In this document: in pieces, positions 7,405 to 43,561 of the stretch
Layout of the letters: every line of letters begins with the position of its first letter
Position numbering within the stretch: position 1 is the stretch's first letter
NCBI RefSeq assembly: GCF_023705585.1
Contig: NZ_BOQE01000001.1
Span: 2,884,710 to 2,948,709, forward strand
Source: Collibacillus ludicampi
Lineage (GTDB): Bacteria; Bacillota; Bacilli; Tumebacillales; BOQE01
Direction of reading: 5' to 3'
Length of the DNA stretch: 64,000 bases
Position numbers and translations under genes: made by a program
Notes under the pieces: model-generated
What the model was told of the DNA's origin: nothing
Databases searched by the model: none
Seen by the model: the letters and a program-made list of their open reading frames with translations, nothing else

Positions 7405-7439
7405 AACTTTAATTATATGGGTATCAGGGATATTGCGGA

Positions 7440-10287: not shown

Positions 10288-10713
10288 TTGTTTTCTATAT
10301 TTAGGAAGAAGAGGGATATAAATAAAAAAAGCGAAATTACTTCTATATCGGAGAACTTGGAGAATAGAAGGGAATACTTCCGAGTAGCCATTAATGAAAA
10401 GGTTTTATTTAGATTAGATATAGCGGGAAATTTAACAAGCTGGGGCGAATGTATTCTTGTCAATATTTCAGCCGGTGGAGCTAAAGTTTTAACAAATTTA
10501 GATTTTCCGGAGAATGTAAGAGTTATTGTTTCTTTTTCATTAGAAAATCAATATACGCTAGTTGCAGAGGTTGTATGGAAAAATAAAATTCACACCATTT
10601 ACCAATATGGGTTAAAATGGTGCAATATTAGTGAGCCAGTACGTGAAAAACTACTTCGAGAATTGATTCGTTATTACAGTCAAGTTGAATTGGGCAAAAA
10701 GAAAATTAAGTGA
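10288..10713 (+). CDS. PilZ domain protein (c-di-GMP effector)
   Basis: A 141-residue protein with a single PilZ domain. The c-di-GMP binding signature is present in both parts: 'NRREYFR' (residues 26-32) and 'NISAGG' (59-64). The N-terminus is short and basic, and no membrane segment or fused domain is present, so it should be a cytosolic adaptor that changes a partner's activity on binding c-di-GMP. The start is TTG 10288, with AGGAGGG seven bases upstream. It follows the recombinase unit at 150 bases. No diguanylate cyclase is nearby. Confidence 0.85.
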   Translation: MFSIFRKKRDINKKSEITSISENLENRREYFRVAINEKVLFRLDIAGNLTSWGECILVNISAGGAKVLTNLDFPENVRVIVSFSLENQYTLVAEVVWKNKIHTIYQYGLKWCNISEPVREKLLRELIRYYSQVELGKKKIK

Positions 10714-11088
10714 CAATAATTTTATCGTAAACTGCACTTGATCCTAACACAGTGCATTTCGAGACGTCATGAGTATCAATAGATTACTTGGATTCGGTAG
10801 TTCGAATCCTTAAATGAGCATTCATGCAATGCTGTATGTCGCACCAGGATACGTGAGAAAATCTGCTTGTTTGCACATCTGAACGAATCGTGCCATATCC
10901 GCGCTAGTAGCCGCGTGATAAACCTGTCCGGTTGGTGTAATTCGGCTTGCCAATCTTCTTGTACGAGGAAACCGAAGCATTGAAATCTACAGCAACGTCC
11001 CACCCATCGTGCTCTTACATAAGGAATTACATATTAACTTCATCCAAGCTTAATGAAATGTGTTTTACATTGGGAGTGGAGGGGTTAT
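10714..11088. other. Intergenic, decayed
   Basis: No gene supported. A minus-strand frame within 10776-11000 gives 'HAATSADMARFVQMCKQADF', possibly the end of an eroded gene whose family I do not recognise. Confidence 0.4.
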
Positions 11089-11663
11089 ATGCATAATACA
11101 AATCTGATTATTCCTCTTTTGGCTATCTCGCTTTTAACAGCTCATAGTACAGCATAAAGTGTCGGTGCAGGCGAAAATAACGCGAAAGCATCCGAAAAAT
11201 CAGAAGTGGAATGGGCCTTCACGCAAGCTCAACATCCGGAGAAAAAACTCATTGAAGTGATCAATGGAGCCAAATCGTGCCTTGATATTGCGATCTACAG
11301 TTTGACCCAGCCTGACATTGTGAAAGCGATCGAGAAGGCGCATGAGATTGGAGTACATGTACGTATCATCACGGATCAACAAGAGGTACAGAATAAATTC
11401 AAAGAGCAGGAATTGAAGATGCTCCGCGAGAAGGGGATCCCGATCAATGAAAACACACTCAAAGGTTTAATGCATCTGAAAGTCACCATTGCAGAGAAGC
11501 CAAGTCAGTCGTGACCACCAGATCGTTCAACTACACAACCGCTGCCAGCACAACAAATGACGAAGTGCTTATTGTAAACCATGATACTGATATGGCTAAG
11601 CAGTGAGAAGATCAATTTGAATGCATGTGGAATGATCACTCGAATTTTGTGGACTTGAAATAG
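11089..11663 (+). pseudogene. PLD-family nuclease lipoprotein, broken copy (2 of 3)
   Basis: Highly similar over its whole length to the intact gene at 24943, including the leader and terminator. It is disabled several ways. TAA replaces a Lys codon at codon 20, right after the signal peptide. The lipobox Cys is lost ('LLTAHS' for 'LLTGCS'). An extra CCAAG shifts the frame just after the HxK motif. A late TGA replaces the Trp codon in 'KQWED'. The body (11206-11514) still reads as 'EWAFTQAQHPEKKLIEVING', so loss is recent. Confidence 0.88.
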
Positions 11664-11671
11664 AAACAATG

Positions 11672-11709
11672 AACCGCCTCAACATCAAGGGCGGTTTATT
11701 CGATTTTTT
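11672..11709 (+). terminator. Terminator of broken PLD copy
   Basis: AACCGCC pairs with GGCGGTT over an 11-base loop, followed by TATTCGATTTTTT. Confidence 0.75.
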
Positions 11710-11785
11710 GGTGGATATTGCTTGATACGAAACAGACAGAGAAGAAAGTCGAGATTCTTCCTTGAGACATGAAAGGAGAAGGAAT

Positions 11786-12058
11786 ATGATCCTGCGACAT
11801 GTGCGTGAATTCGATTATGTACCCGTAATATCGATGATTGACGACTGGCGGGGCGGTCGGCATATGGCTGACATGTTACCAAAACTGTTTTTTCAGCACT
11901 TCCAAGATACAAGTTTTGTTGCTGAAAGGGACGATCAAATTATCGGCTTTTTAATTGGATTTGTGTCGCAAACCTATCCCAACCAAGCGTATATTCATTT
12001 TATTGGTGTACATTCAGAATACAGAAAAGTGGGAATCGAAAAGCGATTATATGAATAA
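11786..12058 (+). pseudogene. GNAT N-acetyltransferase, truncated
   Basis: The frame starts with AGGAGAAGG and ATG and reads 'MILRHVREFDYVPVISMIDD' through 'YIHFIGVHSEYRKVGI'. This is GNAT motifs C/D up to the start of the acetyl-CoA loop. Where R-x-x-G-x-G/A should appear there is 'RKVGIEKRLYE' and then a stop, so motifs A (end) and B are missing. The break lies at the left border of a block duplicated at 32675, so the truncation may be tied to that rearrangement. Confidence 0.75.
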
Positions 12059-12332
12059 ATTGAACGATAGGAGGATTGATGAATGCCCGACAAATGACCA
12101 GTCTTTTGTTAATACTCTAATGAGGAAAAGAATTATGGAGATTCAATAGGGAACTCTCATCTTTCAAATTATTGCTTTTATTATCATACTTTTATTATTA
12201 TTCTCAGTAGTATATGGAGTTTATTTGATGATACGGAAATTTCCCAAAAATAAAGTTAATTAAGAAAATGGCTCACTCATATTCGCTAGGCTACATATGA
12301 TCGAAAGATTTTACACACAAATATGGACTTGA
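12045..12332. repeat. Locally duplicated block, original copy A
   Basis: About 285 bases nearly identical to 32675-32962, beginning at AATAAATTGAACGATAGGAG and ending at ATGGACTTGATC. In the second copy the CMD remnant, the GNAT gene and the 5' end of the GrpB gene are deleted and the sequence jumps straight into the GrpB frame. Confidence 0.85.
12135..12263 (+). pseudogene. Small membrane protein gene with a nonsense codon
   Basis: The frame reads MEIQ, TAG, then 'GTLIFQIIAFIIILLLLFSV' and 'VYGVYLMIRKFPKNKVN': one hydrophobic helix and a basic tail. The copy at 32757 has TGG at codon 5 but a TAA at codon 22. An ancestral 42-residue single-span protein is implied, broken independently in each copy. 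Confidence 0.6.
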
Positions 12333-12480
12333 TCGTGTGAAGGAAGGAGCAAGTAAAGAGGAAATCATAGAAGCAATTAAAGTGGGAGTTATTGCAGGTG
12401 GATCGATTACATACCCAAATGCTCGGTTTGCCTTTGAGATGCTTAAAGAAATAGGTGTTATTTTACCTCTATCTTGTTAA
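12316..12480 (+). pseudogene. Carboxymuconolactone decarboxylase/AhpD-like, C-terminal fragment
   Basis: Fifty-four codons read 'HKYGLDRVKEGASKEEIIEA' then 'IKVGVIAGGSITYPNARFAF', the C-terminal helices of CMD/AhpD-type proteins. The catalytic CxxC helix upstream is absent and there is no start codon. The upstream sequence belongs to the duplicated block. Confidence 0.65.
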
Positions 12481-12649
12481 ATCCAATATCCCTTATTTAA
12501 TTATCGGGAATCGTGAGTGGAGAAGAGGGTATTTTGCTCTTCTGTTTGCGAGACTACACTAACGGACAGTTTAACGCAATAATCGATAATTTTACTGAAA
12601 ATATCTTCACGTGATAAAATTTCTTTAAAAAGGAAAAGGAAGGGAGAAA

Positions 12650-13129
12650 ATGGGCAATATCCCGACTTTATGGAAAAGAGATGAATTTTCGATCTCTACT
12701 GAAAAGAATTACTTGGATATAGATGTAATATTTAATTTCTTGAATAAGGAATCATATTGGGCGAATGGAATCCCCAGAGAAGTTGTTATTGAATCAATTA
12801 AAAATACTCCTCTATGTTTTGGAATTTATAAAGGAGACCCAACAATTGGACAAGCACATCTCATCGGTTTTGGAAGAGTGATTTCAGATTTATCTAGATT
12901 TGCATATTTAGCTGATGTATTCGTTCTAAAGCCTTTTCGTGGGTTAGGTTTATCAAAATGGTTAATGAGTATAATTATAGAACATCCCCAACTTCAGACT
13001 GTCCGTAGATTTATGTTGGCAACAAACGATGCACATTCTTTGTATGCACAATATGGTTTTGAACCACTGGATAATCCATCTATTTTTATGCAGCTTGTTC
13101 GTAATAATATTTATCAGAATCGGGAGTAA
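12650..13129 (+). CDS. GNAT family N-acetyltransferase
   Basis: A 159-residue GNAT acetyltransferase. Motif A is clear: the strand 'ADVFVLKPFRGLGLSKWLM' carries R-G-x-G-x-S for the acetyl-CoA pyrophosphate. Motif B reads 'RRFMLATNDAHSLYAQYGFE', with the Tyr and F/Y-G-F landmarks. The ATG is preceded by AAGGGAG. It is full length compared with YitI/YkkB-type GNATs. The substrate is unknown. It has its own upstream region and is followed by a GrpB-family gene at 87 bases, possibly cotranscribed. Confidence 0.85.
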   Translation: MGNIPTLWKRDEFSISTEKNYLDIDVIFNFLNKESYWANGIPREVVIESIKNTPLCFGIYKGDPTIGQAHLIGFGRVISDLSRFAYLADVFVLKPFRGLGLSKWLMSIIIEHPQLQTVRRFMLATNDAHSLYAQYGFEPLDNPSIFMQLVRNNIYQNRE

Positions 13130-13216
13130 TCACTGTGGAGGGGCAAAACAGCTCCCCCACTAAGGATCACTCATGGGGCGGTTCTTAGTTTACCCTTACA
13201 TTGAGGTGGGATTTAT

Positions 13217-13729
13217 ATGGAGAATGTATTTTTTTCTGATGTTAAGTTTTTTTATGATAAAGTTGAAATTCTTTTCAAACAACAAAAAGAACGAATTAAA
13301 GAGTTATTACCTGATGCAGATGTTCAACATGTCGGAAGCACAGCAATTCCGGGTACTATAACAAAAGGAGATTTGGATATTCAGGTTCGCGTAACTGCTG
13401 ATGTGTTTCCTGATGCTGTAAAAACATTGACTAAGTTATATGAACTTAATGACGGTAGCATACAAACGGATTGTTTCAGAGCCTTTAAGGATGACACTTT
13501 TGACCCACCATTAGGAGTTCAATTGACTGTAATCGGTTCTGAACACGATATATTTTATAAAATTAGGGATGTTTTATTAAACAACCCAATGTATAGAAAA
13601 CAGTACAATGAGCTGAAAAGGCAATATGAAGGTAAAGATATGGATGATTATAGATCGGCGAAAAGACTGTTTTTTGAAAGGTTAATGGAAACCCCTGAAT
13701 ATATAGAACTGAATAAAAAAGAAATATAA
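13217..13729 (+). CDS. GrpB/UPF0157 family nucleotidyltransferase-fold protein
   Basis: A 170-residue GrpB-domain protein. The nucleotidyltransferase-like core is visible as 'HVGSTAIPGTITKGDLDIQV' (residues 39-58), with the GS helix and the D-x-D metal pair. The tail 'YRSAKRLFFERLMETPEYI' is also typical. Family members are often small stand-alone proteins of unknown substrate; GrpB fusions with CoaE exist in other bacteria. AGGTGGGA precedes the ATG. A second copy at 32963-34870 lacks its start and is split by an IS4-type element. Confidence 0.85.
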   Translation: MENVFFSDVKFFYDKVEILFKQQKERIKELLPDADVQHVGSTAIPGTITKGDLDIQVRVTADVFPDAVKTLTKLYELNDGSIQTDCFRAFKDDTFDPPLGVQLTVIGSEHDIFYKIRDVLLNNPMYRKQYNELKRQYEGKDMDDYRSAKRLFFERLMETPEYIELNKKEI

Positions 13730-13928
13730 TAAAACATTGATTTTGCTCGATTACTTGTTCAACTAACGGAAATCGAGAGCTAAATATACACAAATTAAAT
13801 AGATATTGTCAGCCTGTTGTGCTAACGGGCAGTAATGCTGAACAAAACAGTTACGATTATAGTCGACGCAAAATTTTAAAAATTTTGTTATGATATTTGA
13901 TAATAGAAATTAATCTGGAGGTGTTCTT

Positions 13929-14194
13929 GTGAAAGCAAAAAATGTTTATCATTACGACGCTTTCAGTAGTATTCCTAATATGAGGAATCCAGCGGGAGCA
14001 GTTTTTGATGGAGAAGACCTTACCGAAAAATAAATAGGGAGTCTGATTCTTCATTAAACCTTTTGATTGAACAAGGTCAGGAAATTGGAGGGGATGGCAG
14101 AATCGGAGTAACAGTAAAAAGAAGTAATGGACAGTACGAGATCGAGATTACAGGTAATGCTGTTTATGTTAAAGAATTTGATGTTTCAATATAA
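13929..14194 (+). pseudogene. PhzF family gene, internally deleted
   Basis: A good site and GTG start lead into '[17 protein letters not shown]' then a stop at 14031. After the stop the sequence resumes with 'LNLLIEQGQEIGGDGRIGV' and ends 'NAVYVKEFDVSI'. These are the two extremities of a PhzF-type (phenazine biosynthesis isomerase-like) protein, normally about 260-300 residues, so the middle has been deleted. A second N-terminal fragment lies at 35072. Confidence 0.75.
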
Positions 14195-14268
14195 ATCATC
14201 CTTATTACTCTCGAGAGCAAAATATATACAAAATTAAACAGGCTGTTGGGCAGTAGGAGGGTCTAGAA

Positions 14269-14589
14269 ATGGAGGATCAATCTTCATTTAAAGAGCATTT
14301 ATGTCAATTAGAGAAGCAGTTGTTAGAACCTGAAATTCGTACATCTCCAGCAGAACTAGAAAAGTTACTCGCAGACGATTTCTTCGAATTTGGAATTTCT
14401 GGTAATATTTGGTATAAAAAGGATTGTATTGGTGAGGGTAGACTAAGTGTGCGGGAAATGACCCTTTATGATTTTGACATACATCCTTTATCAGCAGATG
14501 TGGTGTTAACAACATATCGTGTAACGGCTCCCGAAATTACCAACAAAATTACCGCCAGTGGCATTCACACACCAATTTGGAAAGTTTAG
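14269..14589 (+). pseudogene. DUF4440/SnoaL-like gene, 5' copy fused to foreign sequence
   Basis: The first about 83 codons match the intact protein at 7832 closely ('EHLCQLEKQLLEPEIR', 'ADDFFEFGISGNIWYKKDC', 'DIHPLSADVVLTTYRV'). Identity then stops abruptly and 'APEITNKITASGIHTPIWKV' follows to a chance stop. The C-terminal strands needed for the fold are missing. A recombination junction at about 14523 is indicated. Confidence 0.75.
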
Positions 14590-15140
14590 TGATTTGGAAG
14601 GTGAGATAAACGATCGTTTTGAAATTGAATACTTAAATGAGTATCAGCCCGAAAATCATTTTATGGTTAAGATTAATCCTTCAAAGTATGGACTAACAAT
14701 AAGAAAAGAAGCTATTGACTATACATACCAATTAAAAGATGGAAACAAAGCCATATATAGTAAGGAAATAGTCAAAGGATTTAAACCGAATAATCCTTGG
14801 TGAGAACGAGAAAGTGTGAGCATTCATGCGGATGGGTTGCCTTCTCCTTCAACATTCGGTGAATACGATAGGTATGAAGGCTTTATTCAAGTTCCAGGTG
14901 AAATAAGTTGGAGGTTCAAACTGTCTCCTGTTTACGACCCGCAAAGATTCATTAAGGGAACGACCTGGTGTGACAAACCATTCCGTAACTGTAGACACTA
15001 TATGATATTGAGTAGATTTAAACGACTGCTTTGACTGGAATATTCTACCTAATGTCCAATCCACTTGGTCCGTCCTATACTAGTATTTAAGTGAAAGGAG
15101 CATTCCTGTAACGAAAAAAGATTTACTTTGGAAAAGAAAA
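14520..15140. other. Fragments of unrecognised genes
   Basis: From the junction at about 14523 a start-less frame runs to 14803 ('FEIEYLNEYQPENHFMVKI', 'GFKPNNPW'). A second frame at 14816-15034 contains 'YDRYEGFIQVPGEISWRF'. Neither has a ribosome-binding site or a family I recognise. They look like the C-terminal remains of two acquired genes cut by the neighbouring element. Confidence 0.45.
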
Positions 15141-15205
15141 GTACCTCCTGTTAACATACTGGGTGTCAAGCTGCAGCGATGACCCCTAAATAACAGAGGA
15201 GGTAC
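15141..15205 (+). promoter_or_regulatory. Hairpin that buries the transposase ribosome-binding site
   Basis: GTACCTCC (15141-15148) pairs with GGAGGTAC (15198-15205), and TGTTA pairs with TAACA around a two-base bulge. An inner stem (GGGTGTCA with TGACCC) fills the loop. Read-through RNA would hide the SD; RNA starting inside the loop would not. Confidence 0.55.
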
Positions 15206-15210
15206 TCCAT

Positions 15211-16494
15211 ATGAAGTATAAAACGAATCAACGAATTCTGCAAATCACAGAATCAACGTTAGTTGTTGGGGCAGATATCGCTAAGAAAACGCATATTGCC
15301 CGTGCCATGGATTTACGTGGGGTTGAGCTTGGTAAGCCTTGCACTTTTGAAAACACACGGCATGGACTTATGAGTCTCCTGCATTGGCTGAATACGCTCA
15401 AGGATCTCCACGACAAATAAAACGTCCTCTTTGGCTTAGAGCCGACAGGCCATTACTGGATGCCCTTAGCCCAGTTTCTGCGTAAGCACGGGATCAAAGT
15501 CGTTCTGGTCAATCCTCATCACGTGAAGAAGAGCAAAGAGCTCGACGATAATTCTCCGACCAAGAACGATAAAAAAGATGCTGCCGTCATCGCCAGACTC
15601 ATCAAGGACGGGCGATACACGGAGCCCCATCTTCCGACGGATATCTACGCAGAACTCCGTGTGGCCATGGTTCAACGGAATCGATTGATTGGAGATCTCA
15701 ATCGTGTGAAGGGGAGGATTCATAACTGGTTGGATCGCTTCTTCCCAGAGTATATCCAGGTCTTTAAAGATTGGGAAGGGAAAGCGTCTCTGTTAACTCT
15801 GAAAAAATTCCCCTTTCCACAAGATGTGGTGAATATGAGCCCAGATGAGATTGTTGCTGTTTGGAAGACGGCAGTGAAACGGGCCGTAGGCCGGAAAAGA
15901 GCAGACTGTCTCATTCATCATGCCAAGCAATCGATTGGTCTCACGGAAGGGATTGAATCCGGCCGATTCGAGTTAAAGATTCTCCTGGAGCAATACGAAA
16001 TGCTCTGTAGGCAAATGGAAGATCTGATGCAGAGAATTCAGCAACTTCTTGAACAGATCCCCGGTACCAAGGAAATGATGACCGTACCTGGGGTGGGATG
16101 GGTAACTGTAGCAGGCTTTTTAGCGGAAGTAGGGGATCTTTCTTCCTATGAGGATGGGCGACAAATCATTCGGTTCGCAGGGCTGAATCTCAAAGAAAAC
16201 AGTTCGGGCAAACATAAAGGGAAAACGAGGATCACCAAAAGAGGCCGGCCTCGCCTGCGATCCTTGCTTTTTAAGTGCGCTATGGTACTCGTCGCCAAAA
16301 ACGAACAATTGAAAACCCTGCATCAATATTTAACCACTCGCCCACAAAATCCGTTAAAAAAGAAACAGTCCATCATCGCCATATGCGGAAAAATCGTCCG
16401 AATCCTCTTTTGTTTAGGACGTAAAAGGTTGTCTTACGATGCACAGGAAGTATTAAGTTCTATACGGAAAAACATGTTACAGAATGCAGCTTAA
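15211..16494 (+). pseudogene. IS110-family transposase with one in-frame stop
   Basis: A single frame of about 427 codons interrupted only by TAA at 15418, between 'LKDLHDK' and 'NVLFGLEPTGHYW'. The N-terminal RuvC-like DEDD half begins 'VVGADIAKKTHIARAMDL'. The C-terminal Transposase_20 half has 'MTVPGVGWVTVAGFLAEVGD' and the Ser-containing 'NSSGKHKGKTRITKRGRPRL'. IS110 enzymes act with a bridge RNA. With the nonsense codon this copy should make no full-length protein, unless the stop is a sequencing error. ATG 15211 follows AGAGGAGGT. Confidence 0.85.
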
Positions 16495-25559: not shown

Positions 25560-25849
25560 CTCCCAATCGAGCCACAGTGACTCGCGATTTCTCACTGTTC
25601 GAAACGCGCTGTGTTGGTGAAAACGAAAACCCAAGCGTGATAACAGGGGTGATCAAGATTTTTCTCTGATTTTTACATCTTTTATTAATGTTATAAAAAT
25701 TGCGAATAATTTTCCTTATCCAAGATAATGATTGTGCATATGCAGGTAATGCTTCAAGATCATAAATATTGTATACAAACTTTATTTCAGGGAATATCAC
25801 ATAATCCTTTGCGGCTAATAAGCGATGGTACAGCTAACTTTTTTACAGC
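25560..25849. other. Intergenic spacer
   Basis: No gene. 25609-25640 carries a trace of the unknown 'KTKTQA' gene end also seen at 19680 and 20070. Confidence 0.4.
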
Positions 25850-26218
25850 TTAGAAGAACATACGGCCGCCACCAAAGCCTGGTCCCACCATACCTGGTCC
25901 CACCATACCTGGCCCCACCATACCTGGTCCCATCATACCTGGTCCCATCATACCTGGTCCCACCATACCTGGTCCCATCATACCTGGTCCCATCATACCT
26001 GGTCCCATCATACCTGGTCCCACCATACCTGGTCCCACCATACCTAGCCCCATCATACCTGGTCCCACCATACCTAGCCCCATCATACCTGGCCTCATCA
26101 AGCCTGGTCTAAACATACCTGGTCCCATAGGTGCAAAAACAAGTTCTGCGTTTTCGTCTTTCGCTATTGCATTTGATTTCCTATTCACGCCTTGTTTTTG
26201 CATTTTATGCTTCACCAT
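25850..26218 (-). CDS. GPGM-repeat low-complexity protein (spore-coat-like)
   Basis: A 122-residue protein. About 30 ordinary residues with a basic start ('MVKHKMQKQGVNRKSNAIAK') are followed by about 17 copies of a five-residue unit G-P-G-M-M/V, and the protein ends in 'GFGGGRMFF'. Such Gly/Pro/Met repeats occur in spore coat and exosporium proteins, and the Met content suggests an oxidant sink or flexible filament (inference). GAGGTGACGATA places the ATG at 26218. The DNA repeat is 15 bases and should vary in number between strains. Confidence 0.75.
   Translation of the reverse strand: MVKHKMQKQGVNRKSNAIAKDENAELVFAPMGPGMFRPGLMRPGMMGLGMVGPGMMGLGMVGPGMVGPGMMGPGMMGPGMMGPGMVGPGMMGPGMMGPGMVGPGMVGPGMVGPGFGGGRMFF
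25877..26130. repeat. 15-bp tandem repeat (about 17 units)
   Basis: The unit is ACCTGGTCCCACCAT with C/T and C/A variants, in frame inside the GPGM protein. It is a candidate hypervariable minisatellite. Confidence 0.9.
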
Positions 26219-26843: not shown

Positions 26844-27311
26844 ATGGCGCGAAGAACTACCGAACGTCGCACAACGGGCCGTCGCACGACGAGTCGTCGA
26901 CGACAAGACATCGCACAACAGTTCATTAGGACCATAGTCGACGGACTACTAGACATCGCAGAACAATTCTTTAGAACCACAGGGCGTCGCACAACGGGTC
27001 GTCGCCGTACAACAGGTCGCCGACGCACAACAGGTCGCCGACGCACAACAGGTCGCCGACGCACAACGGGTCGTCGCCGTACAACAGGTCGCCGACGCAC
27101 AACAGGTCGCCGACGCACAACAGGTCGCCGACGCACAACGGGTCGTCGCCGTACAACGGGTCGCCGTCGTACAACGGGTCGCCGACGCACAACGGGTCGT
27201 CGCCGTACAACGGGTCGTCGCCGTACAACGGGTCGCCGTCGTACAACGGGTCGTCGTCGTACAACGGGTCGTCGTCGTACAACGGGTCGTAGTTCAAAGA
27301 GTCACGTATGA
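26844..27311 (+). CDS. TTGRRR-repeat, extremely basic protein (CotG-like)
   Basis: A 155-residue protein with a strong ribosome-binding site (AAGGAGTGA). Residues 1-20 are degenerate R-R-T-T units. Residues 20-48 form an amphipathic helix ('QDIAQQFIRTIVDGLLDIAE'). Residues 50-148 are 16 perfect TTGRRR hexads plus TTG, and the tail is RSSKSHV. Roughly half of the repeat residues are Arg and a third Thr. This resembles the Ser/Lys/Arg repeats of spore coat CotG, which CotH kinases phosphorylate; here Thr would be the acceptor (inference). Protamine-like DNA binding is the alternative. The array uses only CGT/CGC/CGA Arg codons. Confidence 0.75.
   Translation: MARRTTERRTTGRRTTSRRRQDIAQQFIRTIVDGLLDIAEQFFRTTGRRTTGRRRTTGRRRTTGRRRTTGRRRTTGRRRTTGRRRTTGRRRTTGRRRTTGRRRTTGRRRTTGRRRTTGRRRTTGRRRTTGRRRTTGRRRTTGRRRTTGRSSKSHV
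26989..27290. repeat. 18-bp tandem repeat array
   Basis: Units of the type CGTCGCCGTACAACGGGT with synonymous variants (CGCCGACGCACAACAGGT). About 16 in-frame copies encode TTGRRR. The mixture of two synonymous unit types in blocks suggests repeated slippage or gene conversion. Confidence 0.9.
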
Positions 27312-27344
27312 AAAAGCCCCGTATACCCTTTTTAGGGCCGGGGC
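27311..27344 (-). terminator. Minus-strand terminator-like hairpin
   Basis: GCCCCG and CGGGGC with inner ACCC/GGG pairing. The T-run is on the minus-strand side, so it acts against leftward transcripts, although it directly follows the plus-strand TTGRRR gene. Confidence 0.55.
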
Positions 27345-27596: not shown

Positions 27597-27625
27597 CAAA
27601 AAAGCCCTGAGCCCTTACGGCTCAA
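27597..27625 (-). terminator. Terminator downstream of minus-strand tRNA-Sec
   Basis: On the minus strand TGAGCC and GGCTCA form a hairpin over GTAAG, followed by GGGCTTTTTT. It lies 14 bases beyond the tRNA 3' end. Confidence 0.75.
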
Positions 27626-27638
27626 AGCTTTTCAGATT

Positions 27639-27730
27639 TGGCGGGAACGTGTGGGAATCGAACCCACCTGCGACACCCCGTGCCGCACACTCGGTTTTGA
27701 AGACCGGGAGGGAAGACCACACACGTTTCA
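27639..27730 (-). tRNA. selC: tRNA-Sec (UCA), second copy with altered 5' part
   Basis: The 3' two-thirds are a clear selenocysteine tRNA: anticodon stem CCGGT/ACCGA with loop CTTCAAA (anticodon TCA), a long variable arm, T arm GTGGG-TTCGATT-CCCAC and encoded CCA. The variable arm differs from the copy at 35870 by paired changes (GAG:CTC to GCG:CGC and GCAT:ATGT to GCAC:GTGT), so pairing was kept by selection. The 5' part is abnormal. The acceptor strand TGAAACG gives two mismatches with CGTTCCC, and the D region is five bases shorter and lacks the D stem-loop seen in the other copy. Either it is newly damaged or it is a non-standard tRNA. It has its own terminator. Confidence 0.7.
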
Positions 27731-28002: not shown

Positions 28003-29670
28003 ATGAAAATAAATTCGCGAGAAATGGAGTTGCTTTTGGAAGAGATTGAGAAAATTAGAAGAAGAAAGATTATGGATATGGATGAGAGCGACATTCATTA
28101 TATAGACCCTAGAAATCATCTTGCAAAAATAAAAATACATAATAATAATATCATTAGTGGTAGAAGAGGCTGTGGAAAGACTACTCTTTTACTAGCTGCT
28201 AAAAAGGAACTTAACTCAAGTGACCTTTGTATTGCTATAGATTGTCAATCAATTAGAAAACAAGACCAGAATAATATTATTATTTATATATTAAATAAAA
28301 TCTTAGAAGCAGCTCACCAGTATATTGAATCAGAATGTTATGAACCTCTTTTAATAAGAAAACGTTTTACATTTGGCAAAAAGAAAAACGATGAAGAACA
28401 AAGGAAGATTAACAGATGTGAGCTTTTTTTACATACTGTACGCGAAATGCTGTCAATTTTAGATGAGATTAAAAATCATCCTAATGAAATAACATATAAG
28501 GTTAACTATAAGCAAAGTAACAGCAATAAATCGGAATCAAAAAAAGAGACTGGTTCTAAATTAGAAAGTAAAAACCAATTAGAAGGACATTTAGACTTCA
28601 AGTACCAAAAAATCGGAATAAAACTTAATAGTATTAATAGTATTTTGCTAAATGTTTCAAATTCATCTTCGAAACTACTTACTGATGAGGAAAAAACTGA
28701 AGTTACATCAGAAGATATACGAACGATAAAAAAGGATTTGATACTTAATGATATAGTTGATAATCTTTCTCAATTGTTTACTGAATATAGAGAAATATCT
28801 AATAAAAATATAACATTATTTCTAGATGATTTTTATCAAATTCCCATTGAAAAACATCCAAGAATAATTCATTTCCTCCATGATGTTTATAAGAACTGTA
28901 AGGGCTCTGCATTCTCATTTAAGATTTGTACTCTACCAAATAGATTAAAGCTAAATTATGAAGGAGATGAGATATTATCTCCCAAAGATGACTTTTCTAC
29001 TATAAATCTAGATAGAAACTTATCTGAACTAGATAGTCTTAAGCAATATTTATTGGAGATTATATGTTCTATAAAACAAGAACTACACTTGCAAACTAGA
29101 GAAATTGAACAATTATTTAGTTCTGATGAGACTTTATTGTACCTGATAGTGGCATCTGGCGGAGTACCTAGAGATTTTTTACTGATGTTTAGAGATGTTA
29201 TTGAAATCGCAAAAATTAACTCAAAAGAAACTGTTGGTAAAGTAGAAATTTACTCTGTAGTAAACGAATTTAGAAAGGATAAAGACGAAAATATCGAAGT
29301 AGATACCGATATTACTCCCGAATTGATAGAAGAGGCAAAAAGTAAAATTAAATCCGAGATAGTTGATAAATTGAATACCAATGTTTTCTTATATCCACAT
29401 TCGCTATTAGAACATGATGAAGCACTTCTAAGAAACCTAGTTAATTCAAGATACCTACATATAATCAAGGACTCTGTATCATCAGAAAATAGAAAAAAAG
29501 AAATGTTTACTGCTTATCTAGTGGATATGAGCTTTTATATAAATGGAAAGCAATTAAAGAGGAATTTTAAGTTTAGAGAGTTTTGGAAAAAGGATAATGA
29601 ATCAAGATTTAAAGATATTGATTCTGCTCCTATTTGGGCATTTTCAAAAAGTTCGTCATCAAATACCTAA
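28003..29670 (+). CDS. ORC/CDC6-like P-loop ATPase, orphan accessory gene
   Basis: A 555-residue AAA-type ATPase. Walker A is 'GRRGCGKT' (53-60), Walker B 'ITLFLDDF' (270-277), a sensor-like 'FKICTLPNR' lies at about 306-314, and the sensor-2-like 'GGVPRDFL' at 386-393 is typical of ORC/CDC6-type and related STAND ATPases. A Lys/Ser-rich charged insert lies between residues 160 and 200. No helicase or nuclease motif is seen. The gene is very AT-rich compared with the backbone and lies 270 bases from a tRNA-Sec copy, the usual sign of an island gene. Proteins of this type are frequent in phage-defence islands as the ATPase of two-gene systems. No partner is present: the following 530 bases are empty and then an IS66 element begins. 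Confidence 0.8.
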   Translation: MKINSREMELLLEEIEKIRRRKIMDMDESDIHYIDPRNHLAKIKIHNNNIISGRRGCGKTTLLLAAKKELNSSDLCIAIDCQSIRKQDQNNIIIYILNKILEAAHQYIESECYEPLLIRKRFTFGKKKNDEEQRKINRCELFLHTVREMLSILDEIKNHPNEITYKVNYKQSNSNKSESKKETGSKLESKNQLEGHLDFKYQKIGIKLNSINSILLNVSNSSSKLLTDEEKTEVTSEDIRTIKKDLILNDIVDNLSQLFTEYREISNKNITLFLDDFYQIPIEKHPRIIHFLHDVYKNCKGSAFSFKICTLPNRLKLNYEGDEILSPKDDFSTINLDRNLSELDSLKQYLLEIICSIKQELHLQTREIEQLFSSDETLLYLIVASGGVPRDFLLMFRDVIEIAKINSKETVGKVEIYSVVNEFRKDKDENIEVDTDITPELIEEAKSKIKSEIVDKLNTNVFLYPHSLLEHDEALLRNLVNSRYLHIIKDSVSSENRKKEMFTAYLVDMSFYINGKQLKRNFKFREFWKKDNESRFKDIDSAPIWAFSKSSSSNT

Positions 29671-32608: not shown

Positions 32609-32674
32609 ATCATACGAAAATCCCCATCTCTTCAAATGGTGGGGATTATTTTACGCTTACTTACGCTTACTTAT

Positions 32675-32962
32675 AGAATAAATTGAACGATAGGAGGATT
32701 GATGAATGCCCGAAAAATGACCGGTCTTTTATTAATACTCTAATGAGAAAAAAATTATGGAGATTCAATGGGGAACTCTCATCTTTCAAATTATTGCTTT
32801 TATTATCATACTATTATTTTAATTCTCAGTAGTATATGGAGTTCATTTGATGATACAGAAATTTTTTTAAAAAAGAAATAAATTTAAATAAATAAATGGA
32901 TCACTCATATTCGCTAGGCTACATATGATCGAAAGATTTTACACACAAATATGGACTTGATC
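32675..32962. repeat. Duplicated block, second copy A'
   Basis: Nearly identical to 12045-12332. At ATGGACTTGATC it jumps to sequence matching 13264 onward, so about 930 bases (CMD remnant, GNAT gene, GrpB 5' end) were deleted in this copy. Its left border is the IS66 right end. Confidence 0.85.
32757..32822 (+). pseudogene. Small membrane protein gene, second copy
   Basis: Reads 'MEIQWGTLIFQIIAFIIILL' then F and TAA. It keeps the Trp lost from the copy at 12135 but is stopped at codon 22, in the middle of the membrane helix. Confidence 0.6.
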
Positions 32963-33301
32963 TTGAAATTCTTTTCAAACAACAAAAAGAACGAATCAAA
33001 GAGTTATTACCTGATGCAGATGTTCAACATGTCGGAAGTACAGCAATTCCGGGTACTATAACAAAAGGAGATTTGGATATTCAGGTTCGCGTAACTGCTG
33101 ATTGTTTTCCTGATGCTGTAAAAACATTGACTAAGTTATATGAACTTAATGACGGTAGCATACAAACTGATTGTTTCAGAGCCTTTAAGGATGACACTCT
33201 TGACCCACCATTAGGAGTTCAATTGACTGTAATCGGTTCTGAACACGATATATTTTATAAAATTAGGGATGTTTTATTAAACAACCCAATGTATAGGAAA
33301 C

Positions 33302-34733
33302 CACTAGTGTTGCATTAATTAATTCAGAATATTCTTCTATTATTTTTTTCATCTCTTAAATAAAAAAATCCTTTACAATGGAGAGGTCAGGTAGTCCTGT
33401 CCAAATCCATTGAAAGGAAATACACTTATGGACAAGGATAAGGATACCCTACTTTCGGCATTTGGTAAATGGGTTGAACCACTTTTTCAGTGTAATTTTC
33501 AAGAAAAAGTAGATCAAAACCAACAAGATAAATACGCTAAGAAGCTTACTACGAAATCTTACGTCCTGTTATTTCTGCACGCCATCTTGCAAAAACGTGA
33601 AAGTTTACGTGCCGTTGCGGCAGATATCTTGAATCCTCATATGCAAGAATTCTTGCAATTAGATTCCATCAGCTATTCGCAACTTTCACGGAAACACCGT
33701 CAGGTGGATACCGATCTACTCGCTCATCTGTTTTTTTCTTTAGTTGGAAAAATCCAATGCATGGCTGCTAACCCTGCCGGGCGGAAGCCATACAAAATCA
33801 TAGACTCAACTACGATCAGTTTATGTTTATCAAAATACCGCTGGGCGAGCTTTCGGAAAACCAAAGCGGGAATAAAAATCCACGTGAGCTTGGCATTTGT
33901 CGATCATGATGAAGTCTATCCTGAACAGATTCGTCTAACGACGGCGAAGCCTAATGACATCACACAAATGGATTCCTTGATTGATGATTCGGAAGCCATC
34001 TATGTGTTTGATCGTGGTTATGTCGATTACAAGAAATTTGATGATTATTGCCGTAGGGGAATAGGCTTTGTTACCCGTTTGAAGGACAATGCAACGTTCT
34101 ACCTTCTGGAATCTCAAGTGCTTCATGAGAGTCCTGTCCTTGCGGACACAAAAGTGTTGCTAGGATCCCCTCAAAAGCCCATGGATCACGTACTTCGACT
34201 GGTCGAGGCAAAGGATTCACAGGGCAATGACATAAGAATTATTACCAACTGTTTTGATTTGTCAGCAGAAGAGATCAGTGACATATATCGTACACGATGG
34301 GCAATCGAATTGTTTTTTAAATGGATGAAACAACATTTGAGAATCAAAACGTTTTATGGTCTCTCCGAAACGGCGGTTTGGAACCAAGTGTATCTTGCTT
34401 TGATCACCTATTGTCTGATGATTCTAATGAAGATGCAAATTCAAACTACCAAAAGCTTATTGGAGTTGCTTCGAAGTCTAAAGGCCTTCTTATGGTGCGA
34501 TTACATAGAATGGTTCAAGTACAATAGATCATCGAAAAAAAGGCGAAGGTAAGAGATCTCAGCAATGAATCGGCATGCCAGAATACAGGACAGTAACGGA
34601 ACCCTTTCTTTTTAGAATATACATATTATACCAAATGGGCGGGGCTACCTTTAACGTGCTCTGTCCTTATTTTGTTAAAATAGCATTAGATTAAAACGCA
34701 GAAAATTCAGTTATAATTTATGCAACACTAGTG
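33302..34733 (+). mobile_element. IS4-family insertion sequence with 9-bp target duplication
   Basis: 1432 bp. Terminal inverted repeats begin CACTAGTGTTGCAT on both ends. It is flanked by the 9-bp duplication ATAGGAAAC (33293-33301 and 34734-34742) inside the GrpB copy. It encodes one transposase. The clean ends and duplication indicate recent direct insertion. Confidence 0.93.
33428..34552 (+). CDS. IS4-family transposase (DDE)
   Basis: 374 residues. The N-terminal DUF4372-like region 'HAILQKRESLRAVAADI' is followed by a catalytic core with D in 'IIDSTTISL', D in 'VFDRGYVDYKKF', and the Y-(2)-R-(3)-E-(6)-K signature in 'YRTRWAIELFFKWMKQHL'. ATG 33428 follows GAAAGGAAA; the frame is open six codons upstream. 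All catalytic residues are present, so the element is probably active. Confidence 0.92.
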   Translation: MDKDKDTLLSAFGKWVEPLFQCNFQEKVDQNQQDKYAKKLTTKSYVLLFLHAILQKRESLRAVAADILNPHMQEFLQLDSISYSQLSRKHRQVDTDLLAHLFFSLVGKIQCMAANPAGRKPYKIIDSTTISLCLSKYRWASFRKTKAGIKIHVSLAFVDHDEVYPEQIRLTTAKPNDITQMDSLIDDSEAIYVFDRGYVDYKKFDDYCRRGIGFVTRLKDNATFYLLESQVLHESPVLADTKVLLGSPQKPMDHVLRLVEAKDSQGNDIRIITNCFDLSAEEISDIYRTRWAIELFFKWMKQHLRIKTFYGLSETAVWNQVYLALITYCLMILMKMQIQTTKSLLELLRSLKAFLWCDYIEWFKYNRSSKKRRR

Positions 34734-35071
34734 ATAGGAAACAGTAAAATGAGCTGAAAAGGCAATATGAAGGTAAAGATATGGACGATTATAGATCGGC
34801 GAAAAGACTGTTTTTTGAAAGGTTAATGGAAACCCCTGAATATATAGAACTGAATAAAAAAGAAATATAATAAAACATTGATTTTGCTCGGTTACTTGTT
34901 CAACAAACAGAGATCGAGAGCTAAAAATACACAAATTAAACAGATGTTGGGCAGCCTGTTGTGCTAACGGGCAGTAATGCTGAAGAAAACAGTTACGAAT
35001 TTAGTGGATGGAAAATTTTTAAAATTTTGTTGTGGTATATGATAATTAGAAATTAAGCTGGAGGTGTACTT

Positions 35072-35261
35072 GTGAAAGCAGAAACGGTTTATCATTACGA
35101 CGCTTTCAGTAGTATTCCTAATATGGGGAACCCAGCGGAAGTAGTTTTAGATGGAGCAGACCTTACCGAAAAACAGATGCAAGAGGTAGCAGAAAAAGTA
35201 GGTTTTAATGAAACGGCTTTTGTACTCAAATCCGAAAATGCTGATTTAAGAATTCGTTTTG
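35072..35261 (+). pseudogene. PhzF family gene, N-terminal fragment (second copy)
   Basis: GCTGGAGGTG and GTG start, then '[20 protein letters not shown]' and '[17 protein letters not shown]'. This is better preserved than the copy at 13929 up to 'ADLRIRF', after which it is cut by IS21 sequence at about 35262. The catalytic Glu region ('GFNETAF') is present but three quarters of the protein is missing. Confidence 0.8.
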
Positions 35262-35834
35262 GATGCAGAAATCACAGAACGACAGAGGCGAAATCTGGAG
35301 GTCCGAACGAAACTGGCTCATCTTCCTTACAGGAAAACAATTGAAGAGTTTGACTTTGCTTTCCAACCCAGTATCAATGAGCGTCTCATCCGTGAACGGG
35401 CCACCATGGCATTTGTCACTCGAAATGAGAACGTTTTGTTCTTGGGGCCTCCCGAGGTTGGAAAGAGTCATTTGGCGGTGGCGTTAGCAATAGAAGCCAT
35501 AAGACTTGGGATTTCTGTCTATTTTGTGAGCTTGACTTATATGATTGAAGATCTAAGGAAGGACTATGCGGAAAACTGACTGGACAAGCGATTACGTGTG
35601 TATATAAGGCCAAAAATTCTTATCATTGATTAAGTTGGGTATCTTCCTCTTGACAGTTTGGCTACGAATCTCTTCTTTCAAGTAGTGAGTGTTCGTTACG
35701 AGCGAGGGAGTATCTTGATGAACAGTAACAAAAGTTTTGGTGAATGGGGAGAGCTTATGGGAGATCCGGTATTGGCGACAACCGTCCTTGATCGTCTCCT
35801 TCACCATAGCTGGGTAGTCCTTGAAAACAATTGA
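35259..35834 (+). pseudogene. IS21-family istB (ATPase helper), 5'-truncated and broken
   Basis: Reads '[18 protein letters not shown]', then a Walker A 'GPPEVGKSHLAVAL' (G to E against the usual GPPGVGKT). A TGA in the frame and later a TAA inside 'ILIID*VGYLPLD' break it, and it ends 'SNKSFGEWGELMGD' and 'ATTVLDRLLHHSWVV'. It is the transposition helper ATPase without its istA partner. It is inserted into the PhzF copy. Confidence 0.85.
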
Positions 35835-35869: not shown

Positions 35870-35966
35870 GGGAACGGATGGGGTACTGGTGTCCCTCCCG
35901 GTCTTCAAAACCGAGTGTGAGGCATGGGATGTCTCAGGTGGGTTCGATTCCCACACGTTCCCGCCA
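35870..35966 (+). tRNA. selC: tRNA-Sec (UCA), canonical copy
   Basis: A 97-base selenocysteine tRNA. Acceptor GGGAACG pairs perfectly with CGTTCCC, and the encoded CCA is present. The D region GGGG...CCC is intact, the anticodon loop is CTTCAAA (anticodon TCA), the variable arm is long (GAG-GCAT-GGG-ATGT-CTC), and the T arm is GTGGG-TTCGATT-CCCAC. It reads UGA as selenocysteine with SelB and a SECIS element. None of selA, selB or selD lies in this window. Its 3' end is duplicated at 37108, so it serves as an integration site. Confidence 0.95.
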
Positions 35967-35979
35967 AAAATGTTGATAT
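35941..35979 (+). repeat. attL-like repeat: tRNA-Sec 3' end
   Basis: A 39-base segment from the T arm through the CCA and 13 bases beyond. It recurs at 37108-37146 with two or three differences. Such 3'-tRNA duplications are left by integrase-mediated islands. Confidence 0.8.
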
Positions 35980-36072
35980 GATACGGATTTTAAACATTAG
36001 GATTCCTCGGGGATTCACATGGATTTTTGCAGGGAATCGTCGATAATTCAGGTGAAAAACGTATGTTATTGT

Positions 36073-36099
36073 AACCTCCTAACTACTCGTTAGGAGGTT
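36073..36099 (+). promoter_or_regulatory. Hairpin containing the ribosome-binding site of the integrase remnant
   Basis: AACCTCCTAAC and GTTAGGAGGTT form an 11-bp stem over TACTC, followed by TTTATT and then ATG 36106. The GGAGG that would serve this ATG is inside the stem. It can act as a terminator or as a translation block. Confidence 0.6.
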
Positions 36100-36105
36100 T
36101 TTATT

Positions 36106-36291
36106 ATGATTAAAACGAAGAAAATGCGTAAGTACGGCTAAGGTGAGCGTAACCCTGTTATCTACACGAAATTTACTTTAATTGAAGCGTTTCAACGATT
36201 CATTGACGCTAAAGTTGCGGAAGGATTAGCTTCAACAATCGTATCCCCAGTTGCCCATACGAGAAACCTCAAAGTTGCCAATAACACCTAA
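36106..36291 (+). pseudogene. Tyrosine integrase, N-terminal (SAM-like) remnant
   Basis: Reads 'MIKTKKMRKYG', TAA, then 'IYTKFTLIEAFQRFIDAKVA' and 'EGLASTIVSPVAHTRNLKV'. The second part is the core-binding helix pair of phage-type integrases (T-x-x-E-A-F-x-x-F...K...G-L-A-x-x-T). The catalytic domain is absent. Its place next to the att-like repeat fits an island integrase. Confidence 0.65.
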
Positions 36292-36330
36292 TGCTTCAAG
36301 CAGAATATCCATGCTTTTTTGCAAGATGAC

Positions 36331-36897
36331 TTACTGATCGGTATATCCGTTAACGATCAGATCGAGCTTGCCCGTCTCGGGATCGATGACCAGCCCGTGC
36401 ACGGGAATGCCCGAGATCAACAGCGGGTGGTTTTTGATTACATCGACGCTGTGACGTACACTGTCCTCAACGCAGTCGAAGCCGCGAAGCCATGCGTGTA
36501 GGTCAATCCCTGAGCGCTGAATCGTTTGTATAGTCGTTGCGGAAACCCCTCGACTTACCATGTTATCCAAAGTTCTGCTCGGATCGATATTGCCCATGCC
36601 GCACCCGTGATGACCGATGACGCAAACCTCTTCCGCTCCCAACTCGTAAATCGCGACCAAAATGCTTCGCATCACGCTTCCGAAGGGATGCACGACGGTA
36701 GCACCCGCGTCCTTTATGATTTTCGCATCCCCGTTTCTCAGCCCCATCGCCCGCGGGAGAAGCTCCGTCAGTCTCGTGTCCATGCATGAAAGGACGACCA
36801 GCTTCTTGTCGGGATATTTTGTCGTCTCATATTTCTCGAACTCCCTGTCCTCGACGAACCGGTGATTGTGCTCCAAAATCCTTTCCAAAAGCTTCAT
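36331..36897 (-). CDS. Beta-class carbonic anhydrase
   Basis: A 188-residue zinc enzyme interconverting CO2 and bicarbonate in the cytosol. The complete active site is visible: C38 and D40-x-R42 in 'LSCMDTRL', and H96 and C99 in 'GHHGCGM'. Length and the 'DAGATVVHPFGSVMRSIL' segment match the YvdA/YtiB group of bacilli. ACAGGAGGG precedes the ATG. It lies inside the tRNA-Sec island, on the opposite strand to the integrase remnant, so it is probably cargo. A gamma-type homologue lies at 6604. Confidence 0.92.
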   Translation of the reverse strand: MKLLERILEHNHRFVEDREFEKYETTKYPDKKLVVLSCMDTRLTELLPRAMGLRNGDAKIIKDAGATVVHPFGSVMRSILVAIYELGAEEVCVIGHHGCGMGNIDPSRTLDNMVSRGVSATTIQTIQRSGIDLHAWLRGFDCVEDSVRHSVDVIKNHPLLISGIPVHGLVIDPETGKLDLIVNGYTDQ

Positions 36898-37107
36898 CCA
36901 AAACCCTCCTGTCTTCGTTCGTGTTTCAATCCCTCATATGTAATCTACAAACCTAAATTTCGCCTTTCCGATATCGATTTCTACGCAGGTAATTAAGTAT
37001 CATCTGCTGGATTCTAAGCGATACTTGTTTCACCTCGAACTAAACATTCTCAATTATAAATTCGACATCGTTCTCTGTCGATCCTCTAACCGATTTGAAA
37101 CAATGAC

Positions 37108-37146
37108 GGTTAGATTCCCACACGTTCCCTCCAAAAATGTTGATAT
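37108..37146 (+). repeat. attR-like repeat: copy of tRNA-Sec 3' end
   Basis: Matches 35941-35979. The CCA position reads TCCA instead of GCCA. There is no tRNA body upstream, so it is not itself a gene. Confidence 0.8.
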
Positions 37147-40998: not shown

Positions 40999-41054
40999 GT
41001 CGACTGCTAATGTGTTGACAGAGGACCAACTGGAAATCAAACATGCGCTTGATA
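40999..41054 (+). repeat. 56-bp direct repeat, left of IS66 copy 2
   Basis: From GTCGACTGCTAATG to GCGCTTGATA. It is identical to 43506-43561, so the two copies directly abut the IS66 ends. Confidence 0.92.
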
Positions 41055-41138
41055 GTAAGCGTCAAATACTTCCCACCTACTAACCTCGTATTGTATTTGA
41101 GATAATCTCCTCAAGATATTCGGAGAGGAGAACTTTCA

Positions 41139-41456
41139 ATGTCCCATGCAGAATTAAGAAAAGAGTGGGAGGTACGGATCGCTGCTTTTCGGGCTAGCGG
41201 ACAGAGTGCATCAGCTTGGTGTAGAGCTCATCAGTTGAAGCTTCATCAGTTCCGGTATTGGCTCCGGAAGTTTGAACACAAAGAAGCCGCTGTGACCCCA
41301 TCATCCAAGTGGATATCGGTAGAAGTGGACGGGCAGACTGACGAGTCTAGAAACACCTTGCTCGTTAGAGTAGGGCAAGTAACCGTAGAGATCCAGCCTG
41401 GCTTTGATCCTGCCCTGCTGGCCGACGTCGTGCGAACACTCCAAACGTTATGCTAA
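41139..41456 (+). CDS. tnpA: IS66 accessory protein TnpA (copy 2)
   Basis: 105 residues, differing from the copy at 30290 at only a handful of positions (for example 'KFEHKEAAV' for 'KIEHKEAVV'). Complete, with the same ribosome-binding site and the same overlap with tnpB. Confidence 0.9.
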   Translation: MSHAELRKEWEVRIAAFRASGQSASAWCRAHQLKLHQFRYWLRKFEHKEAAVTPSSKWISVEVDGQTDESRNTLLVRVGQVTVEIQPGFDPALLADVVRTLQTLC

Positions 41457-41806
41457 GCGAAGCTAGTGTAGAGCGAGTATATCTGGCCTACGGAAGCACC
41501 GATCTACGGAAATCGATTGACGGGTTAGCTGTGCTCGTCAAGGAAGAGTTTGAACTCGACCCTTTCTCGCCCTGTCTCTTCGTTTTCTGCAATCGAAAGC
41601 GAGATAAACTGAAGATTCTTCATTGGGAACACAACGGTTTCTGGCTCTATTACCGCCGATTAGAGAAAGGAAAATTTCAGTGGCCGGAAGAAGCGAGCGC
41701 CGTACCGTTGAAAATTAGTCGTCGGGAGTTGCGTTGGCTACTCGATGGTCTATCTCTCGAACAGCGACAAGCTCACCCTGCCGTCACTGCGCGTACGATT
41801 CTATGA
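41450..41806 (+). CDS. tnpB: IS66 accessory protein TnpB (copy 2)
   Basis: 118 residues, almost identical to the copy at 30601 ('YLAYGSTDLRK' for '[11 protein letters not shown]'). Complete. Confidence 0.92.
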   Translation: MLSEASVERVYLAYGSTDLRKSIDGLAVLVKEEFELDPFSPCLFVFCNRKRDKLKILHWEHNGFWLYYRRLEKGKFQWPEEASAVPLKISRRELRWLLDGLSLEQRQAHPAVTARTIL

Positions 41807-41876
41807 TATGTACACCCAATTAGACTTTGGGATTAAAAAAAGGAATTCGCGGTATGTTGTCGAAATCAATAGTATT

Positions 41877-43453
41877 ATGAAAAATCATACGCCGAACCCG
41901 ACCCCTACTACAATTGAAGATCTCCAAAAAGAACGCGATTTGCTGAAAAATCAAATTGCTGAACTCACTGCCAAACTGAAGTGGTATGAGGAGCAGTTTC
42001 GTCTTAGCCAACAGCGCCGGTTTAGCTCTTCGAGCGAACGAACGAATGCCGATCAGCTTGAGCTTTTTAACGAAGCCGAGGTGGAGGCAGATCCCACTGT
42101 AGAGGAGCCTACCCTCGAAACCATTACGTACCGCCGCTCCAAAAACGCGGCCACCGGGAAACCAGCTTGAAAACCTGCCTGTGGAGACGATCGAGTATCG
42201 CCTGCCATCTGAGGAGCAGGTTTGTTCGTGTTGCGGTGGTTCTTTGCATGAAATGAGCACGGAGATACGGCAAGAGCTGAAGATCATTCCGGCCGAAGTC
42301 AAAGTGGTCAAGCATGTCCGTTACGTCTACTCCTGCCGCCGTTGTGAGCGTGAGGAGACAAGTACGCCGACAGTCACAGCTTCTATGCCTGCCCCCGTCT
42401 TTCCGGGGAGTTTGGCTTCTGCTTCCAGTATGGCCTATATCATGAGTCAAAAATATGTGGAGAGCATGCCTCTCTACCGACAAGAGCAACAGTTTGCAAG
42501 CCTGGGGATTGAGTTGTCTCGTCAGACCCTGGCCAACTGGATCCTCTACGGAGCGAATACCTGGTTGAGTCTGCTCTATGATCGCATGCGCGAGCACTTA
42601 CTCAAGCAGGACATCTTGCACGCAGACGAGACGACCTTACAAGTGCTCCGTGAACCGGGCCGGGCCGCACAGACAACTTCTTATCTATGGCTGTACCGTA
42701 CCGGGAGAGAAGATCCGCCCATCATCCTCTATGACTACCAGACGACACGGGCGAGCAAACACCCGCGTCAGTTTCTTTCCGGTTTCAAAGGATACCTGCA
42801 CGTCGATGGCTATGCGGGTTACCATGGGATACCGGATGTGACCCTGGTCGGTTGTTGGGCTCACGCCCGGCGCAAATTCGATGAGGCACTCAAGGCGCTG
42901 CCTGAATCGAAGCGCTCGTCACCGGTAGCAGCCAAAGAGGGACTTACTTTCTGCAATCAACTCTTTGCGATTGAACGTGACTTAAAGGAGTGCACGCCTG
43001 AGGAACGTTACCATATCCGTCAAGAACGCAGCCGCCCTGTGTTGGATGCTTTTTTGGCATGGCTTCGTACTCAGAAACCGAAAGTGCTGCCCAAAAGTGC
43101 GTTCGGTCAGGCCATCTTGTATTGTCTGAACCAGTGGGAAAAATTAGAGGCGTTTTACAAGATGGGCGATTGGAGATCGATAACAACCGAAGTGAACGCG
43201 CGATCAAACCGTTTGTGATCGGTCGCAAAACTGGTTGTTCTCCAATACCCCGCGTGGTGCAAAGGCGAGTGCGATCATTTACAGTATCATAGAGACAGCG
43301 AAAGAAAATGGATTACATCCCTATTTCTATCTTACCTATCTCTTTGAGAAACTACCTAACCTAGATATGAAAGACAAAGATTCCTTAGATCAGCTTCTCC
43401 CTTGGTCAGAAAGCCTACCGCTTACCTGCCGGGCTATAAAAAAGAATACGTAA
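41877..43453 (+). pseudogene. tnpC: IS66 transposase TnpC (copy 2), frameshifted
   Basis: Against copy 1 there are single-base losses in an A-run and a C-run near 42143-42165, in a T-run near 43153 and in an A-run near 43229. The frame is split into 41877-42170, 42181-43218 and 43235-43453. The catalytic D residues fall in the middle piece and the '[11 protein letters not shown]' segment in a shifted frame, so no active enzyme is expected. Confidence 0.88.
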
Positions 43454-43505
43454 ATCATACGAAAATCCCCATCTCTTCGAAAGGTGGGGATTATTTTACG
43501 CTTAC

Positions 43506-43561
43506 GTCGACTGCTAATGTGTTGACAGAGGACCAACTGGAAATCAAACATGCGCTTGATA
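43506..43561 (+). repeat. 56-bp direct repeat, right of IS66 copy 2
   Basis: Identical to 40999-41054; see the matching finding. Confidence 0.92.

What the first reader, a model, noticed from the sequence alone, without database searches (positions are those of the whole stretch)
35941..37146. att-like duplication of the tRNA-Sec 3' end flanking an integrase remnant and a beta-carbonic anhydrase
A 39-base segment (T arm, acceptor, CCA and 13 bases beyond) at 35941-35979 recurs at 37108-37146. Just inside the left copy is an integrase N-terminal remnant, and the only intact gene between the repeats is a carbonic anhydrase. This is the layout of an integrative island reduced to one cargo gene. 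tRNA-Sec is a known but uncommon integration target.
Basis: partly seen in the sequence, partly recalled or inferred. Interest (0 to 1): 0.66.

Follow-up and report, generated by a model that had tools for sequence, protein, structure and literature searches.

The report
Decayed selC integration hotspot, rearranged
A selenocysteine tRNA gene in this bacterium carries the worn-down left end of a mobile element with a short repeat and a carbonic anhydrase gene beside it; the kind of thing is well known, but here the element's real other end appears to have been moved and flipped, and the repeat seen first is probably not it.

Summary
The repeat is real: 37 of 39 bases match, 1,167 bp apart; the left copy ends an intact tRNA-Sec gene. 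The 13 bases after CCA also follow selC, just before an integrase or fragment, in Cytobacillus oceanisediminis and genome G004, so they belong to an element's left end, and copy 37108-37146 looks like a second left-end-type copy. The better attR candidate lies outside the finding: window 27637-27713 (minus) holds tRNA positions 23-99 plus a terminator and flank that match, with the same 5' boundary, a selC 3'-half copy in G002, whose selC precedes an intact integrase. It is inverted relative to selC, so the locus was rearranged. The carbonic anhydrase is compositionally unusual (GC3 0.67); its cargo status is unproven. In 10 of 11 same-order selC genomes the site shows an integrase trace, the hairpin or a tRNA 3'-end copy. 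A terminator-like hairpin carrying the integrase ribosome site recurs. New member of a known kind.

The parts
35870..35966 (+). selC, intact tRNA-Sec gene (copy A); 3' half probably supplied by the element
   Evidence: ARAGORN; Rfam 67.8 bits, cut-off 47
35941..35979 (+). left copy of the 39-base repeat: T loop to CCA plus 13 bases of element left end
   Evidence: 13 bases shared (12 of them exactly in G004) with Cytobacillus oceanisediminis L103 and G004 selC-integrase junctions
36073..36099 (+). 11-bp hairpin whose 3' arm holds GGAGG, followed by TTTATT and the ATG of the integrase remnant; predicted terminator of selC and mask of the integrase ribosome site
   Evidence: -16.4 kcal/mol, z -5.5, 0 of 200 shuffles as good; stem pairs 9-11 change on both sides among 8 selC sites
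36106..36291 (+). integrase N-terminal remnant, one in-frame TAA
   Evidence: Pfam none
36331..36897 (-). beta-carbonic anhydrase, intact; GC3 0.667
   Evidence: Pfam Pro_CA; composition
37108..37146 (+). right copy (C) of the 39-base repeat; probably a leftover left-end-type junction
27637..27713 (-). selC 3'-half copy (B), tRNA positions 23-99; attR-like
   Evidence: same 5' boundary as the G002 C43 copy; 78% over 214 bases including the flank
27599..27633 (-). terminator-like hairpin and ancestral-type selC flank behind copy B
   Evidence: -23.6 kcal/mol, z -4.7; homologous flank in G002 and similar terminator behind own copy D
28003..29670 (+). AT-rich ATPase gene (GC 0.287) on the element side of copy B; possible true island cargo
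   Evidence: weak AAA matches; composition
35259..35834 (+). IstB (IS21-type) remnant directly upstream of selC
   Evidence: Pfam IstB_IS21 on 35259-35576; the rest by reading

Best explanation
selC was the target of a tyrosine-integrase element. Integration replaced the 3' half of selC with the element's version (copy A) and put the integrase gene just behind it; the host's own 3' half and terminator were displaced to the far end (copy B, attR-like). At least one related element probably used the same site, leaving a second left-end-type copy (C) in tandem. Afterwards the integrase was broken, most of the element was lost, and rearrangement moved B to the other side of selC in inverted orientation. 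Shown: the copies, their boundaries, the flank homologies and the recurrence at selC in relatives. Inferred: order of events, the inversion, the tandem origin of C, and that selC transcription is now stopped by the element's hairpin. The genome keeps an intact selA and selB, so selC A is probably the working tRNA.
For: Left-end bases and a hairpin-GGAGG-ATG arrangement are shared with the selC-integrase junction of Cytobacillus oceanisediminis. Copy B and the G002 C43 copy begin at the same tRNA bases (TCCCTCCCGG) and share their 3' flank. A and B differ at 4 of 77 positions, all in the variable arm; by my reading two of them form an A-T to C-G pair change, as expected if both halves were once selected in different genomes. 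Of 11 same-order genomes with a strong tRNA-Sec, 7 have an integrase or integrase start behind selC (G002, G004, G006, G008, G009, G011, G012), 2 more keep the hairpin (G005, G007), and G001, G002, G005, G007 and G012 have a second tRNA-Sec 3' part; in G013 I saw none of these. selA 618 bits and selB 391 bits, both over cut-off.
Against: No same-genus or same-family genome was available, so the empty site was never seen. No single IS pair examined explains B's position. A third copy, D (C1:3293460), with the same terminator type is not explained. Copy C has no tRNA match 5' of the T loop, so a small local duplication remains possible. The integrase remnant matches over only about 20 residues. 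Native-flank status of B rests on G002 alone; G006 and G008 have another sequence there, but also an integrase behind it.
Confidence: 0.68

Rival explanations
1. One reading: one small island between attL (35941-35979) and attR (37108-37146), core of 39 bases, with carbonic anhydrase as the only cargo left.
For: Long direct repeat at a tRNA 3' end, integrase remnant inside the left copy; carbonic anhydrase has the highest GC3 of 12 window genes compared, 0.667 against 0.216-0.525.
Against: The flank after copy C is not the selC flank shared by copy B and G002. The 13 bases past CCA recur beside integrases in two other genomes, so they look element-borne rather than host attB.
Confidence: 0.17
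2. Copy C is a chance or repair-made local duplication of the end of selC, and the carbonic anhydrase is an ordinary chromosomal gene brought next to selC by rearrangement.
For: No tRNA match 5' of the T loop in C; the locus is full of IS copies and rearranged; carbonic anhydrases of this family are common.
Against: C begins at the T loop and ends with element left-end bases, which a random duplication would not favour; selC 3'-end copies behind selC are recurrent in the order.
Confidence: 0.15

Closest known systems
tRNA-targeting genomic islands with adjacent integrase (review PMC2704930, passages seen)
   Same: Insertion at a tRNA 3' end, integrase next to the tRNA, direct repeats, odd composition
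   Different: Here decayed, with an attR-like copy displaced and inverted and several extra tRNA 3'-end copies
selC islands of Escherichia coli, such as AGI-3 (named in PMC2704930, passage; LEE and phiR73 recalled)
   Same: Same tRNA gene used as target
   Different: Different phylum; relation of the integrases was not tested
tRNA-followed-by-integrase ('STI') arrangement of PMC2951348 (passages seen)
   Same: tRNA precedes integrase in the same direction; that paper notes a bias for tRNA SelC
   Different: That paper deals with autoregulation at a promoter overlapping the recombination region; 'Shine' has 0 occurrences in its main text

Membership tests
tRNA-integrated genomic island / integrative element | insertion at the 3' part of a tRNA gene | tested here: met
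   selC 35870-35966 with element left end directly behind
tRNA-integrated genomic island / integrative element | integrase gene next to the tRNA | tested here: met
   only a broken N-terminal remnant here; open integrase frames behind selC in G002, G006, G008, G103 and a second G009 selC
tRNA-integrated genomic island / integrative element | attL/attR direct repeats bounding the element | tested here: inconclusive
   35941/37108 repeat has the wrong flank; copy B fits attR but is inverted
tRNA-integrated genomic island / integrative element | unoccupied site in close relatives | not testable with these tools
   no same-genus or same-family genome among 61
tRNA-integrated genomic island / integrative element | cargo gene carried by the element | tested here: inconclusive
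   carbonic anhydrase GC3 unusual, tree unresolved, 0 of 11 same-order selC genomes have it near selC
single clade of selC-specific integrases | selC-adjacent integrases form one clade | tested here: not met
   tree of 28 rows, 7 at selC: starred branches force at least 2 changes of the label, 0% of 200 bootstrap trees with one

The most novel reading that the evidence does not exclude
Elements that land behind selC bring a single RNA hairpin with two jobs: it ends the tRNA-Sec transcript in place of the displaced native terminator, and its 3' arm is the ribosome site of the integrase, so read-through from the tRNA promoter cannot make integrase. In 8 of 14 selC sites scanned (own, Cytobacillus, G103, two G009 sites, G007, G011, G012) the hairpin is kept, with changes on both sides of some stem pairs; 3 of 9 integrase loci at other tRNAs look alike (G283 Arg, G153 Arg, G095 Val), the other 6 and the selC sites of G006 and G008 do not.
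Probability: 0.45. Interest if true: 0.5.

Novelty: new member of a known kind. Interest (0 to 1): 0.3.

Why it matters
It shows that selC is a repeated landing site for integrases in this order of Bacilli, and warns that a neat direct repeat at a tRNA end need not be the att pair. If the hairpin reading holds, it would explain how an element can sit behind a transcribed tRNA gene without making integrase all the time.

Tried and rejected
Viral contigs were scanned for YCCNCCAAAAATGTTGATAT: 2 records, both lacking a tRNA and reading as phage coding sequence, rejected as chance. Synteny of selC neighbours: tblastn of the window's ORFs of 110 aa or more against 21 loci gave no shared gene order at selC, only the antisense frame over copy B, IS66, integrases, regulators, a TerC-type protein and carbonic anhydrase itself; the phosphonate-binding gene upstream of selC in G002 has only distant matches in this genome (best 23%). 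A composite transposon between the two IS66 copies: IS66b has its own 56-base flank duplication and IS66a no matching flanks, so no support. Single clade of selC integrases: rejected. A search of 398 genomes of the phylum with the G009 integrase at E 1e-60 hit 1 genome (G103), so this close group is rare in that sample. The class-wide integrase search returned matches in 299 of 299 genomes, most of them other recombinases. Papers: seven searches were read as listings; passages of PMC2951348 and PMC2704930 were read; I saw no title in those listings on the hairpin or on selC elements in this order.

Full report
Observation. The 39-base repeat is present as described, 37 of 39 identical, 1,167 bp apart. 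The left copy is the end of an intact tRNA-Sec gene at 35870-35966 plus 13 bases. Behind it are a hairpin at 36073-36099, an ATG, and a remnant of about 61 codons with one stop. The remnant resembles the start of the selC-adjacent integrase of G002 (13/20) and G009 (11/20); Pfam finds nothing, so this call leans on position as well as on sequence. Carbonic anhydrase 36331-36897 (-) is intact.

What the repeat is. In 61 genomes (own plus 60 relatives, none of the same genus or family) the query 35941-36330 matched G004 over 49 bases at 92%, that is past the tRNA, and G004 also has an integrase fragment there. A scan of the named genome collection for a loosened form of the junction gave 3 records: Cytobacillus oceanisediminis, Tumebacillus permanentifrigoris and T. 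flagellatus; records very near the window's genome may have been left out. The Cytobacillus selC is followed by the same CCAAAAATGTTGATAT, a hairpin, GGAGGTTTTTATTATG and an integrase in two frames. The 13 bases are therefore best read as element left end. Copy C carries them too, so it is of left-end type, not what attR should look like.

Other selC pieces. A whole-genome search found four matches: selC itself, copy C, copy B (window 27637-27713, minus) and copy D (C1:3293460-3293502). Alignment gives tRNA positions 23-99 for B, 72-110 for C and 56-99 for D (counted on from the first tRNA base, past its end); the G002 C43 copy covers 22-96 of its own selC and starts at the same bases as B. 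B and G002 C43 share 214 bases at 78% including the flank; B, D and G002 C43 are followed by the same type of terminator. B and selC A differ at 4 of 77 bases, all in the variable arm. This fits B as the displaced host half (attR) and A as carrying the element's half. B lies upstream of selC and inverted, so rearrangement must be assumed; no IS pair examined explains it in one step.

Recurrence. Eleven same-order genomes have a strong tRNA-Sec (G003 and G010 do not). Seven have an integrase, broken integrase or integrase start directly behind selC: G002, G004, G006, G008, G009, G011, G012 (G011 by reading, tblastn found none). G005 and G007 keep only the hairpin (G005 by eye). Second tRNA-Sec 3' parts lie behind selC in G001, G005, G007 and G012, and on another contig in G002. 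In G013 I saw neither. So 10 of 11 bear a mark. The integrases at selC are not one clade.

Carbonic anhydrase. Homologs occur in 45 of 61 genomes, 55-65% identical among the best 20. None of the 11 selC genomes of the order has it near selC by coordinates. GC3 is 0.667 against 0.216-0.525 for 11 other window genes. It is the only intact copy in this genome; a broken one lies at C1:2562740. A 21-row tree leaves it unresolved. Foreign origin is likely, carriage by this element is unproven. An AT-rich ATPase gene (GC 0.287) at 28003-29670, on the element side of copy B, is at least as good a cargo candidate.

Hairpin. The own hairpin folds at -16.4 kcal/mol, z -5.5, and its kind (11-bp stem, ribosome site in the 3' arm, T-run, start codon) occurs once in the window. 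In 8 selC sites pairs 9-11 of the stem change on both sides. G006 and G008 have a plain terminator and a separate ribosome site; G002's ribosome site lies only partly in the stem; G004's hairpin found by the scan is weak; for the two G005 copies the scan returned other hairpins, the motif-like one behind the first copy being seen by eye. The 8 were chosen by me from 14 selC sites scanned, so the pair counts are not an unbiased sample.

Status of selC. selA and selB are intact and over cut-off, so the site still has a working tRNA to protect.

Judgement. A real, decayed and rearranged selC integration site. New member of a known kind; the hairpin is the part worth following.

Noticed in passing
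window 40999-41054 and 43506-43561: IS66-type copy at 41055-43505 is flanked by an exact 56-base duplication, much longer than the 8 bases usual for the family (recalled).
   Followed up: partly
window 25818-26177 and 26853-27344: Two genes made of 15-base and 18-base tandem repeats (GPGMM-type and RRTTG-type proteins) next to copy B; part of this block recurs near copy D.
   Followed up: no
window 12047-13729 and 32671-34870: A segment with a GrpB-like gene (family name recalled) seems duplicated; the second copy is split by an IS4-type element with a likely 9-base duplication ATAGGAAAC.
   Followed up: partly
window 9567-10139: A 190-residue integrase catalytic-domain protein is 55% identical to one lying between two tRNA-Sec copies in G012 (L057 9453-9983).
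   Followed up: no
L055 (Tumebacillus permanentifrigoris) 2640-16220: Two near-complete tRNA-Sec genes about 13.5 kb apart with similar flanks, an apparently selC-bounded segment.
   Followed up: partly
G000:C1:2562740-2562868 (L107 9574-9869): Broken second carbonic anhydrase gene in the same genome.
   Followed up: partly
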